Part shown: piece after piece, positions 2,163-50,500 of the stretch
Position numbering within the stretch: position 1 is the first letter of the stretch
Layout of the letters: each line of letters starts with the position of its first letter
The notes under the pieces: model-generated
The model's database searches: none
Seen by the model: only the letters and a program-made list of their open reading frames with translations
Told to the model about the DNA's origin: nothing
Position numbers and translations under genes: made by a program
Assembly: GCF_963678975.1 (NCBI RefSeq)
Contig: NC_089279.1
Coordinates: 33,692,660-33,756,659 of the forward strand
Direction of reading: 5' to 3'
DNA: 64,000 nt
DNA from: Dysidea avara
Taxonomy: Eukaryota > Porifera > Demospongiae > Dictyoceratida > Dysideidae

Positions 2163-2558
2163 TAGCTGGAGTCAGGTATATTTTTGTTACAAACGGCGTT
2201 CCATACGGGCGGGCCGTTATTATTCATTATTTACCAAAGCACAACACGCATCCCAAACATGAAGATTTCTGCCAAGAAGCAGTGAGATCTACATTCATTA
2301 CTCTTGCATTAAGTAGCTAAAGTACGTTACTAGAATATTCAGCTTTTTCTGTAACTCCTAAACAAGTGATTTTTCCATTAGAGTATAGCTGATTGCTCTA
2401 TTAGAATAAAACTGACTGCTCTATTAGTAAGCATTTCAGTATCCGAGATTTTTTAATTAAAAATTTCTCCGTATATTCCCCCAATAGAACCCTGGCACAA
2501 AATGACCGTTTTTGACAACTCGTGTTTAACTTGGGATTGCTCCGTCGTCCGAGCTCCA
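2163..2558. other. Upstream region of the + strand adhesion pseudogene
   Basis: No coding signal is visible. It holds two copies of the dispersed CTCTATTAG-type motif near 2390-2430. It is the only candidate promoter region for the signal-peptide exon that follows. No clear TATA box or other core element was recognised. Confidence 0.4.
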
Positions 2559-2640
2559 ATGAAGATGAAAATCGCTGTGGGGTTTGTCTACATGCTGATC
2601 ATAATGAAAATCTTAGTTGTATCGTGCGCGTTACATATAA
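2559..2640 (+). pseudogene. Signal-peptide exon of the + strand adhesion pseudogene
   Basis: ATG opens MKMKIAVGFVYMLIIMKILV followed by VSCALHIS, a basic start and a long hydrophobic core typical of a secretory signal. The exon ends at a strong donor (a|GTAAGT) in phase 1, matching the phase-1 acceptor of the first vWA exon at 5561. Assignment to this gene rests on phase, strand and position. It is intact by itself. Confidence 0.6.
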
Positions 2641-47500: not shown

Positions 47501-50500
47501 CTCCAAAACCACTAGTGCCATTTGATGCATCACCAGTTGTCCACTGTATCCCACCATCAGCATACAAGAATATAACATAAGAACGTCTTTCATCTGTGCC
47601 CATCACACATTGAAAAGTGTTGAGCTGCAAAATGTGAAAGAATCAATAAATTTTGCATTTAAATTCCCTGCAGTATTAAATTAATACTGATTCTATTTAT
47701 GACCATCAGCTAGCATTTGATTGCTGTTATAGCAAAGCCGTAGGTATATATTTTATATTTTTACATAAAGCTAGGTGAAATGGTAATAAAAAATGAGGAC
47801 AGAGTAAACAGGTTCATCATTAGCATGCTGTAGTAGTGTATAGAGTTGGTACTTAAGTTATGAACAATCTAAGCATTGTCACCCACAGGTGCACTTTTAG
47901 TGAGTTTCTGGAAGCCAGGCTTTTTAAGGCCGCACCATTTTTTCAGTTTGGCTATTTTTATGTGGATTTCACTTCTTTTTGTACTTTATACGACCCCAAA
48001 CCAGCCTATGGCTGACTTTGAGGTTTTTTTACTCACATTTCTTCTTTTCTATGTAGATACAATGATGATTATTCAAGACAGACTTATAAATGTAAGTAAT
48101 CTTTTTCAAACTATATAAGGTTGATATACTCTAATAGAACAGTCAAACCCAAAAGACCCTTCCTCGAGTGAAGCGCAGCCTTGATGTTTTGTATAAGAAA
48201 TTTGCAAACAGAAAAGATGAAGAAGCTTTTGTGTAATTTAAATATGAGTTATTCTTCTATGGCAATGTAATTATGACTACATATAGTTGTGATAGCAAAT
48301 TAATTGATAATGTTACATCAAGAGTTAATAATAAGAGAGGAGATTGTCTAATGCCGTATAGTCCTGTAATAGATGATTGCACAGAAGTTAAATGGCTTCT
48401 TTTCCGCGTAACGTACTGACTGGCTAGTATATTTTTGCATACAACCACAAAGGCTATCCCAGACACAAGGGCGTGCGTTCAACTCGATATTCAAGTTCAC
48501 CACGAAGAGCATCGCTCTGTTGCTTAAGAAAAATGTGGCTGTTAATCTCGAAGATAACTCTGGGGGAGAGCATCTGAGAAACCAATAAACATTGAACCAA
48601 AGGCGGAGTATCGCTTCGAACTTTTACTGCTTCGCCATGTTACCCTACCTTTGAGCATTCTTCAATTGAAGGAGCACTGTTCCCTGTACATACCTGCTCA
48701 GTGTTTAGTTCAGTCTTCGAATATTCTCGAGAATTCATCACGGTGTGGCTAAACTAATTGCGGTTAAGAAACGAACAAATACTAGAAGCTTATACATTAT
48801 ACGGAAAGGAAGCCGTTTAACTTCTGCACAATCATCTATTACAGGCCTATACAGCGTTAGACACTCTCCTCTCTTATTATTAACTCTTGGTTAAATGTAT
48901 TATTTCAAAATAAATGATAGCACAAGCAAAGTATGTCAGTTAAGGTTCATACAGTACATAGTTAATTAATTCCCCCAAAGAAATAGTATGTATTAATTAA
49001 TAACCTTGTTCCCTGCAAAGCAATGGTACTCTAAAGCAAATCCAAACATGTCTAACAAGCTTGCAATTGAAATACCCTTATAGAACAGTCACTCAATATA
49101 CTGTATAATATGTTGATTCAAACTGGGGATCTCATACTTGACATCCATGGGCCTAACCCACTGAGCTACTATCTACCTCCTATACATTCTATCTCATCGA
49201 TAAAAGTTCTAGTTTAAAAGTTCTAGGAAAATGCTTAAATGAGAATGCGAAAAAAATAGTATTGTATTATAGTAGGGATGGTTGAGCAGGCCAAAGACCC
49301 CCCCCCCCCCCCACTTTATGGGACAATGTTTACAAGACTGAAAAGATCGCATGGAGATACTCTAATAGAACAGTCAAGAACAAGATACTCTAATAAAGCA
49401 GTCACAGTATTCAGAGAAGCAGTGTAGCGAGCTACATATGTGTAGTTATAAATAAGGAGATAATGGTTAGTTGGTGGAGGGCAGCTATTGTCAGCAGGTA
49501 GTTACCTTCCTTTTCTTTTTTGGTCTATCTTCAACTTACAGCTAGACCCTGGCATCACTAAAAAGTCTTGCTACATCCCTGAGTTGGCCCTTTCACTTTT
49601 TGGCCTGCTAAACCACCCGTGCTGTAATACAATACTATTTTTTTGCATTCTCATTTAAGCAATTTCCTAGAACTTTTAAACTAGAACTTTTAAACTAGAA
49701 CTTTTATCGATGAGATAGAATGTATAGGAGGTGGATAGTAGCTCAGTGGGTTAGGCCATGGATGTCAAGTATGAGATCCCCAGTTTGAATCAACATATTA
49801 TACAGTATACTGAGTGACTGTTCTATAAGGGTATTTCAATTGCAAGCTTGTTAGACATGTTTGGATTTGCTTTAGAGTACCATTGCTTTGCAGGGAACAA
49901 GGTCATTAATTAATACATACTATTTCTTTGGGGAATTAACTAACCATGTACTGTATGAAATTTAACTGACATACTTTGCTTGTGCTATCATTTATTTTGA
50001 AATAACACATGTAACATTATCAGAAACCATTTTGCTGCTCAGTACTCTAATTATACAAAGCAATAGAGACTGGCCTTGCCACCCCTGTCTCTACCGCCTA
50101 TTTATAATTAGAGTACTTAGCAGCAAAATGGTTTCTGTTAAATAAATTCAATTAACATGTGGTTAGTGGGGTTACATGTAATGAAGCTCTCCAACCATAA
50201 ACAACCATTCAATCATTTTTACATTATTTTACTCTTCTCTCCTAAATTAATATCTCTGGCTACAATTAAACAACCACAGTAGATTGCTAGCACTGCTTCT
50301 TTAAAATGTAGTTAGTATATACTAACTACATTTTAAAGAAGCAGTGCTAGCAATCTACTGTGGTTGTTTAATTGTTGTTGAATCAGTTACTTAACATATA
50401 TATGCACATTGCACTCCCTAATAATCAAACAAAAATGCTAAATTTTATGTGGTCTGATGGCATGTCCAACTATAATTTTACCCTTGAATTGGCCAGGTGC

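What the first reader, a model, noticed from the sequence alone, without database searches (positions are those of the whole stretch)
2384..49840. One short motif, CTCTAATAGARCAGTC, shared by unrelated repeat families
The fuller form starts GATCGAGATACTCTAATAG and runs into ARCAGTC(A). It recurs near 2390, 12220/12245, 18085-18150, 19205-19285, 19571, 22740-22790, 26235-26270, 30870/30900, 38950, 39380/39432, 40388, 44100/44120, 45770, 46975/47010/47035, 48125, 49080, 49355/49385 and 49810. Hosts include hAT-like MITEs with different termini, the satellite composite and a large inverted repeat. It often forms a hairpin or direct dimer, and the core is better kept than its surroundings. It may be a mobile sub-module, a recombination/insertion hotspot, or a bound site that is repeatedly acquired.
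Basis: partly seen in the sequence, partly recalled or inferred. Interest (0 to 1): 0.72.

Follow-up and report, generated by a model that had tools for sequence, protein, structure and literature searches.

The report
Short motif shared by unrelated transposons
A DNA word of about 20 letters recurs tens of thousands of times in this animal genome, inside many jumping-gene families that otherwise look unrelated and often in tandem, as if it were a shared docking site; what it does is not known.

Summary
CTCTAATAGARCAGTC has 36 sites (up to 3 mismatches) in the window against 1.2 expected, and 58,484 exact copies in the window's 551-Mb genome against 0 for the reversed pattern. One representative from each of 44 flank-independent groups gives a 22-bp core, ARATACTCTAATAGARCAGTCA, with an abrupt right edge. 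A 10-bp left extension (GATCRARATA) sits mainly on the first copy of a direct cluster.

Hosts include hAT MITEs with different termini and exact 8-bp duplications, a tRNA-headed element and a satellite composite. Several listed sites are paralogues; about eight to ten window contexts are independent. In the two families sampled, 18 of 18 and 19 of 20 copies carry it, so hosts multiply it.

I found no sign that it moves alone, and alignment ends are not enriched at it. My leading reading (0.38) is a cluster of binding sites that several transposon families acquired and kept; passive capture from a motif-rich genome is as likely (0.37). Constraint is suggestive only (p = 0.06), and the excess in inverted-repeat elements is not significant over the whole list.

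The parts
12212..12240 (+). Full module AGATCGAGATACTCTAATAGAACAATCAG; left half of an inverted dimer
12245..12273 (-). Inverted partner; the two form the middle of a 132-bp palindrome (12177-12308)
12072..12508 (.). Host H: hAT-like MITE, TIR TAGGAACCCACC.../...GGTGGGTCCCTA, imperfect 8-bp TSD (GTTTTGCA/TTTTTGCT, read by eye); its relative L023:2297-2732 has an exact TSD, AAGTAGTG
18070..18151 (-). Direct triplet of the module
   Evidence: present in 18 of 18 sampled copies of the host family
17984..18386 (.). Host T: hAT MITE, TIR TAGGGCTGGGCG, exact 8-bp TSD CTTATAAT; 221 first-look candidates genome-wide
19173..19283 (+). Three direct copies (19173, 19234, 19266)
19054..19427 (.). Host E: hAT MITE, TIR TAGGCCTGCATC, exact 8-bp TSD CAGTTTAG
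19568..19596 (-). Single copy outside host E
22739..22788 (+). Direct dimer in host B; hAT-like TIR GGCGGATCCAG at 22669-22679 and 22958-22968
26231..26276 (+). Direct dimer (spacing 17) between the 31-bp satellite array (26320-29343) and the body of host D
30861..30917 (+). Direct dimer (spacing 28), family B
38957..38999 (+). Two weak copies in a 500-bp family also seen near 46022
39377..39457 (.). Inverted dimer, 29-bp arms 100% complementary, near the middle of host C
39188..39633 (.). Host C: hAT MITE, 20-nt TIR 85% complementary (TAAGCATGCGTACATTATGC / GCATAATGTACTCAAGCCTA), 8-bp TSD GTGAGGTG on both sides read from the alignment, inserted into host A
39635..39918 (+). Host A copy with tRNA-like head (A box to B box 39659-39713) and a decayed module (8-bp deletion) at 39746-39767
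40385..40413 (-). Copy in a host A relative that lacks the head
44093..44138 (-). Direct dimer, second copy of host D
45766..45794 (+). Copy in host A: on the minus strand it follows a tRNA-like head (45839-45893); 1,805 first-look candidates genome-wide
46965..47055 (.). Inverted dimer plus a third copy in the inverted second copy of host C
48118..48146 (+). Single copy; a search with the 171 bp to its right (48150-48320) found only the query place in the genome
49064..49092 (+). Copy in the left arm of a large inverted repeat; tRNA-like head at 49114-49168 (minus strand)
49349..49405 (+). Direct dimer, family B, in the spacer of the same inverted repeat
49814..49842 (-). Copy in the right arm; tRNA-like head at 49739-49792
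2366..2440 (-). Three decayed direct copies, spacing 23

Best explanation
A discrete 22-bp module, ARATACTCTAATAGARCAGTCA, with a 10-bp left extension on the first unit, occurs as homotypic direct clusters inside many non-autonomous elements that otherwise look unrelated. SHOWN: its copy number, its sharp edge, its many flank-independent contexts, its presence in sampled copies of two host families, and decay and loss of units. INFERRED: it is a binding site for one sequence-specific DNA-binding protein (a host factor, or a transposase or domesticated transposase). Elements of different kinds would have acquired clusters from each other's DNA and kept them because the bound protein helps them, for example through germline expression, open chromatin or replication. 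The host element's own transposition then multiplies the module; the module does not move alone.
For: Copy number: 58,484 exact copies, 0 for the reversed control; in 20 fixed 10-kb samples 48 copies with up to 3 mismatches against 4. Edge: across 44 flank-independent representatives A at +17 is kept in 41 of 44, a position not used for selection, while +18 is random. Context: in 264 kb (window and random samples) module 12-mers reach up to 13 flank-independent groups; the best unrelated 12-mers reach 5 (the hAT terminus CAGGGGCGGATC at 9 loci, and three AT-rich words at 5 loci each). Clustering: 7,702 direct dimers; the left extension marks the first unit (mean 7.9 of 10) and not later ones (5.0). 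hAT elements: among the 6 rows that I picked by hand (TAG/CAG termini at both ends, 8-bp TSD, not fetched for their own module) 3 contain it, where random placement of the whole list gives 2.85 of 48. Constraint: host D 0 of 220 pairwise sites against 236 of 2,576 in flanks; six families pooled 9 of 374 against 456 of 3,590; host A 6 of 418 against 94 of 3,065 in unselected flank, p = 0.061.
Against: The pooled constraint figure is biased: families and copies were partly found through the module, and two families (C, E) that misalign at the module were left out; with them it is 40 of 462 against 559 of 4,240. In family B the module is no better kept than most other windows (121 of 178 windows as good or better). 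The cleanest test is not significant, and there the module rate (1.4%) equals that of the query-selected left flank (1.5%). Over the whole list, 5 of 48 candidate elements hold the module against 2.85 by random placement, reached in 149 of 1,000 simulations; outside the window only 1 of 3 of my hand-picked hAT rows has it. Of 48 sampled hits, 33 carry 1-3 mismatches, and clearly decayed copies exist (39746-39767; L035 near 4917 and L017 near 1000). No protein, chromatin or small-RNA data were available.
Confidence: 0.38

Rival explanations
1. Passive capture. An old, highly amplified element or minisatellite scattered the module through the genome. New MITEs and composites trap random filler DNA and so often trap it, then spread it; nothing selects for it.
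For: Density is about one exact copy per 9.4 kb, and random stretches of the lengths hold a copy (up to 3 mismatches) about 6% of the time (2.85 of 48). The overall excess in inverted-repeat elements is not significant (5 of 48; 149 of 1,000 simulations). Host families multiply it: T 18 of 18, A 19 of 20. Host D has 2,490 first-look candidates and its 40 scored copies are 99-100% identical. Decayed copies are common.
Against: Filler capture does not by itself predict a sharp edge at +17 in 44 contexts, or 3 of 6 hand-picked hAT elements holding it, though three of those six lie in a window chosen for the motif.
Confidence: 0.37
2. One ancient longer parent: all copies descend from a single element whose flanks have decayed beyond recognition while the 22 bp were kept.
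For: Clusters in different hosts share an order (full first unit, shorter later units). Hosts A, D and I share flank similarity beyond the module.
Against: Young hosts with 97-100% identical scored copies (D and T) show no flank similarity to each other beyond module copies. Decay cannot give the step from 93% to background between neighbouring bases unless the 22 bp are constrained, which is the leading reading again.
Confidence: 0.12
3. A self-mobile mini-element or short retrocopy that inserts into other repeats.
For: Sharp right edge with graded left side; variable second copies. A single copy lies beside DNA for which a genome search found no second place.
Against: No clean empty site: 18 of 18 T copies are filled. 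One weakly aligned partner of 48129 lacks the module (L041 near 1990), but its alignment around the site is too poor to call an empty site. No target duplication beside the module by eye. L069 loses the right side of host A inside the module, which looks like truncation of the host, not insertion.
Confidence: 0.06
4. A short-homology hinge: the module promotes exchange between elements and so sits at junctions.
For: Host D and its relatives in L018 and L041 share the left side and differ right of the dimer. A and D have related bodies but different partners on the other side of the module, although A's module abuts a stretch that aligns to D's second body repeat, not to the one beside D's module. 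L069 breaks inside the module; E and L049 differ by about one unit.
Against: Alignment ends are not enriched at the module: 19 against a mean of 19.3, reached in 270 of 500 controls.
Confidence: 0.07

Closest known systems
CENP-B box-like and a second conserved motif in dissimilar nematode satellites (PMC3694981, abstract and outline read)
   Same: Short motifs conserved in otherwise dissimilar repeats, proposed to act in rearrangement or transposition.
   Different: Here the hosts include DNA transposons and a tRNA-headed element as well as a satellite composite, and the sequence is not a CENP-B box.
SINE superfamily central domains (CORE, V, Deu, Meta; recalled, the MetaSINE paper is not held)
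   Same: A short sequence shared by elements with different heads and tails; in host A it follows a tRNA-like head.
   Different: It is also inside hAT MITEs and a satellite composite, and it is shorter and arranged in tandem.
Binding motifs spread by transposons, such as CTCF sites in rodent B2 or MSL sites in a Drosophila Helitron (recalled)
   Same: A motif of similar length multiplied by transposable elements.
   Different: As I recall them, those cases involve one main carrier family each; here many unrelated carriers share the motif, and no binder is known.
Cg_HINE Helentron elements of the Pacific oyster (PMC7492417, abstract and outline read)
   Same: Modular combinations of flanks and satellite-like central repeats, like hosts A and D.
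   Different: That abstract does not mention a motif shared with hAT MITEs; the Helentron nature of A and D is not shown here.

Membership tests
hAT MITE (hosts T, E, C) | Exact 8-bp target site duplication | tested here: met
   CTTATAAT, CAGTTTAG, GTGAGGTG (read in the alignment)
hAT MITE (hosts T, E, C) | Terminal inverted repeats, short and without a transposase gene | tested here: met
   lengths 374-446 bp; no ORF of 110 aa or more in these spans
hAT MITE (host B) | Exact 8-bp target site duplication | tested here: inconclusive
   TIR GGCGGATCCAG present; no clean 8-bp duplication by eye at 22660-22976, L033 or L042
tRNA-derived SINE (host A) | Pol III A box and B box in a tRNA-like head | tested here: met
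   TGGTTCAGTGG and GGTTCGAAC in the majority sequence of 19 copies and in the window copies with small changes; ARAGORN, bacterial code, finds no intact tRNA
tRNA-derived SINE (host A) | LINE-like or simple-repeat 3' tail and variable target duplications | not tested
   its body continues about 600 bp and matches host D, which leaves doubt
CENP-B box | NTTCGNNNNANNCGGGN core (recalled) | tested here: not met
   the module has neither TTCG nor CGGG
Self-mobile element | Empty sites or target duplications around the 22-28 bp unit | tested here: inconclusive
   none in 18 T copies or 20 A copies; one partner lacks the module but aligns poorly; duplications looked for by eye only
Protein-binding site dispersed by transposons | A protein that binds it | not testable with these tools
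   no binding, chromatin or expression data
Protein-binding site dispersed by transposons | Lower divergence in the motif than in flanks of the same copies | tested here: inconclusive
   6/418 against 94/3,065, p = 0.061; pooled biased set 9/374 against 456/3,590, or 40/462 against 559/4,240 with two misaligned families kept
Known RNA family | Rfam gathering threshold | tested here: not met
   0 matches in the window

The most novel reading that the evidence does not exclude
One DNA-binding protein of this animal (a host factor or a domesticated transposase) recognises the 22-bp module, and several hAT families, a tRNA-headed element, a satellite composite and perhaps pogo-like elements have separately become dependent on it. 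It would then be a shared licence for amplification, used by unrelated genomic parasites and written across the genome at about one exact site per 9 kb.
Probability: 0.24. Interest if true: 0.82.

Novelty: new variant of a known kind. Interest (0 to 1): 0.55.

Why it matters
Short motifs shared by dissimilar repeats are known, but from recall and the paper searches I know of none at this scale across DNA transposons, a tRNA-headed element and a satellite composite in one genome. If bound, it would give a direct handle on how unrelated transposons exploit the same machinery, and a ready set of tens of thousands of natural sites for testing it. If passive, it would show how far a filler sequence can ride on transposon birth.

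Tried and rejected
Longer common parent: not supported beyond the family groups listed. Chance: rejected. Transposase-binding subterminal repeat of a single hAT family: rejected as the whole story, because the module lies near the middle of host C, off-centre in T and B, and in hosts without hAT ends. Hotspot: the breakpoint test was negative. RNA hairpin: changes at palindromic positions (T2 to C, G9 to A) leave the partner base unchanged in the 22 seed copies, so no covariation; no Rfam family at gathering scores, and the microRNA-like hits stay below them. TIRs around module clusters in general: only a mild excess (21% of 87 against 12% of 300 controls at score 30 or more). A first 12-mer ranking over-linked groups through neighbouring modules and was replaced. 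A flank-first BLAST returned nothing, probably because of its scoring settings, and was redone. Other genomes: 0 exact hits of a 22-mer in genome contigs and of a 20-mer in viral contigs. Literature: five motif strings hit 18 papers, whose titles suggest unrelated contexts (listing only); the Amphimedon promoter paper does not hold CTCTAATAG (passages); one search found none, and searches were seen as listings only, apart from the two papers opened. A sponge origin was suspected from recall only and is not shown.

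Full report
WHAT IS THERE. The motif is real and far beyond chance: 36 window sites with up to 3 mismatches against 1.20 expected, 18 exact CTCTAATAGA against 0.21, and 31 matrix hits against 0-2 in each of ten Markov controls. The window is G000:C8:33692660-33756659 of a 550.8-Mb genome with 29,249 + 29,235 exact 16-mers and 0 for the reversed control. In 20 fixed 10-kb samples there are 15 exact copies and 48 with up to 3 mismatches, against 0 and 4 for the control. 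The genome is animal, judging by VWA, VWD and NIDO domains in 4 of 10 ORFs scanned; the species is not known.

SHAPE OF THE MODULE. I took 131 copies with at most 2 mismatches and 150 bp of flank from the window and L001-L050, leaving out the overlapping L024 and L027. L001-L030 had been chosen for an exact 16-mer. Flank BLAST with module-like sites masked, plus linking of copies within 150 bp, gave 44 groups, an upper bound on independent contexts. One representative per group, the best-matching one, gives ARATACTCTAATAGARCAGTCA. Positions -4 to 0 and +17 were not used for selection: +17 is A in 41 of 44, +18 is random (0.07 bits), and -4, -2, -1 and 0 are kept in 31-36 of 44. Farther left the signal is weak genome-wide, but GATCRARATA is strong on the first unit of direct clusters (mean 7.9 of 10, 20 of 45 perfect), not on later units (5.0), with single copies between (6.0); gaps between units favour 1 and 5 bp (15 and 11 of 53); neighbours within 100 bp are 55 direct and 9 inverted (this set includes L001-L030). 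Genome-wide there are 7,702 direct and 1,102 inverted dimers. The divergent inverted order was not counted.

HOW SPECIAL IT IS. In 264 kb (window and L031-L050), of 593 non-simple 12-mers with at least five spaced loci, those of the module reach up to 13 flank-independent groups. The best 12-mers that are not part of the module or its variants reach 5: the hAT terminus CAGGGGCGGATC (9 loci) and three AT-rich words (5 loci each). The window itself was chosen for the finding, so part of this set is not neutral.

HOSTS. T (17984-18386), E (19054-19427) and C (39188-39633) are hAT MITEs with exact 8-bp duplications and different termini. C was inserted into a copy of host A. H (12072-12508) is a hAT-like MITE whose relative L023:2297-2732 has an exact duplication. 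B has GGCGGATCCAG termini but no clean duplication. L004 has pogo-like termini, recognised by eye. Host A has a tRNA-like head with both Pol III boxes 5' of the module, on the strand opposite to the motif as written. Host D joins a 31-bp satellite array to a body related to that of A. The arms at 49075/49816 carry another tRNA-like head beside a module copy. Pairwise tests of 110-bp flanks across 18 sites (153 pairs, 200 letter shuffles each) give 10 pairs with z above 4 on one side and 23 on the other. Of the first ten, nine lie within families or the A-D-I group and one is an H-B pair at 4.3. Many of the 23 reflect neighbouring module copies in the flank.

HOW COPIES MULTIPLY. Host D's flank has 2,490 first-look candidates, and the 40 scored copies are 99-100% identical. 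Host A's has 1,805, with 40 scored at 95-100%. Host T's has 221, with 40 scored at 97-100%. The scored copies are the best ones, so old copies are not represented. I fetched 20 of the 39 other scored A copies: 19 keep the module (15 with an exact 16-mer, 4 with one or two changes) and run on into the head (in L052, L054 and L061 the head has internal gaps), and one (L069) loses homology inside the module. I fetched 18 of the 39 other scored T copies: all 18 keep the three units, with a few single changes. So the module was in the founders of these families and rides with them. For the single copy at 48129, a search with the 171 bp to its right found only itself (the tool warns that such a result does not prove rarity). 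In the 264-kb set 27 of 53 clusters touch repeat-covered sequence, which makes up 23% of it.

CONSTRAINT. In D five copies show no difference in 220 pairwise sites of the 22 bp against 236 of 2,576 in flanks. Six families pooled (D, B, B2, H, X43, A) give 9 of 374 against 456 of 3,590. Two further families in that call were left out because one member does not align at the module: in L019 (C) the hairpin centre has collapsed, and in L049 (E) about one unit is missing. With them the figure is 40 of 462 against 559 of 4,240. In B the module is not better than other windows (121 of 178 as good or better). The test closest to unbiased, host A found by the flank on one side and scored on the other, gives 6 of 418 against 94 of 3,065, p = 0.061, with L069 left out; the module rate then equals that of the query-selected flank (43 of 2,885), and 16 of 143 windows of the unselected flank are as good. 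With L069 kept it is 16 of 440 against 185 of 3,121. In flank-first pairs, module copies range from intact to 3 mismatches or a 15-bp loss, and one poorly aligned partner has none. Constraint is therefore possible but not proven.

MECHANISM. Shown: a discrete module, homotypic direct clusters, many carriers, amplification by carriers, decay and loss of units. Inferred: a protein-binding site acquired by several element families and kept (0.38). Passive capture from a motif-rich genome (0.37) explains most facts except the sharp edge. On hAT elements the evidence is mixed. One search looked for inverted-repeat elements with 8-bp duplications; over its 48 rows not fetched for their own module (many from one local array in L008), 5 hold the module against 2.85 by random placement, reached in 149 of 1,000 simulations. 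Shifted controls gave 3 and 9 spurious hits, so some rows may be false. Of the 6 rows that I picked by hand as hAT-like, 3 hold it (1 of 3 outside the window). Host C, which that search missed, would add one more. The hinge idea fits several single junctions but failed its global test (19 against 19.3).

COMPARISON. The nearest published pattern I found is the pair of conserved motifs, one CENP-B box-like, shared by dissimilar nematode satellites (PMC3694981, abstract and outline). The modular HINE elements of oyster resemble hosts A and D (PMC7492417, abstract and outline). The module is not a CENP-B box (that consensus is recalled) and matches no Rfam family. I call it a new variant of a known kind.

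Noticed in passing
window 26320-29343 and 42859-44041: 31-bp satellite arrays (CTGTAGAGAGTTCAGCTACAAACAAATCACC) next to host D, a high-copy element whose 40 scored copies are 99-100% identical over the searched flank.
   Followed up: partly
window 12083-12505, 39188-39633, 19054-19427; L023: A second short word, GCATAATAGG and variants, repeats near the ends of several TAGG-type hAT MITEs (by eye) and may be their subterminal transposase site.
   Followed up: no
window 25463-26241 and 44128-44898: The body of hosts A and D holds two diverged repeats of about 245 bp and ends in a hairpin (CACACTATCGTGTG) before CTTGATA, reminiscent (recalled) of Helitron or Helentron 3' ends.
   Followed up: partly
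window 1-212 and 1768-1979; 50262-50375: A 212-bp inverted pair at 99.5% identity and a perfect 114-bp palindrome.
   Followed up: no
window 36419-37221: Candidate inverted-repeat element with matching 12-bp ends and palindromic 8-bp flanks.
   Followed up: no
window 41960-42559, minus strand: 199-aa ORF that reads like the C-terminal part of a LINE reverse transcriptase by eye; no Pfam match.
   Followed up: no
window 6698-7099, 11221-11631, 29731-30381, 47274-47642: ORFs with VWA, VWD and NIDO domains.
   Followed up: no
L008 280-1230: Dense local array of ATGGTAGC/TACTGCAGTA words giving many inverted-repeat calls.
   Followed up: no
L069 (G000:C1:3043720-3044064): Host A copy whose homology stops inside the module; beyond the break lies what looks by eye like a gene start with an open frame.
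   Followed up: no
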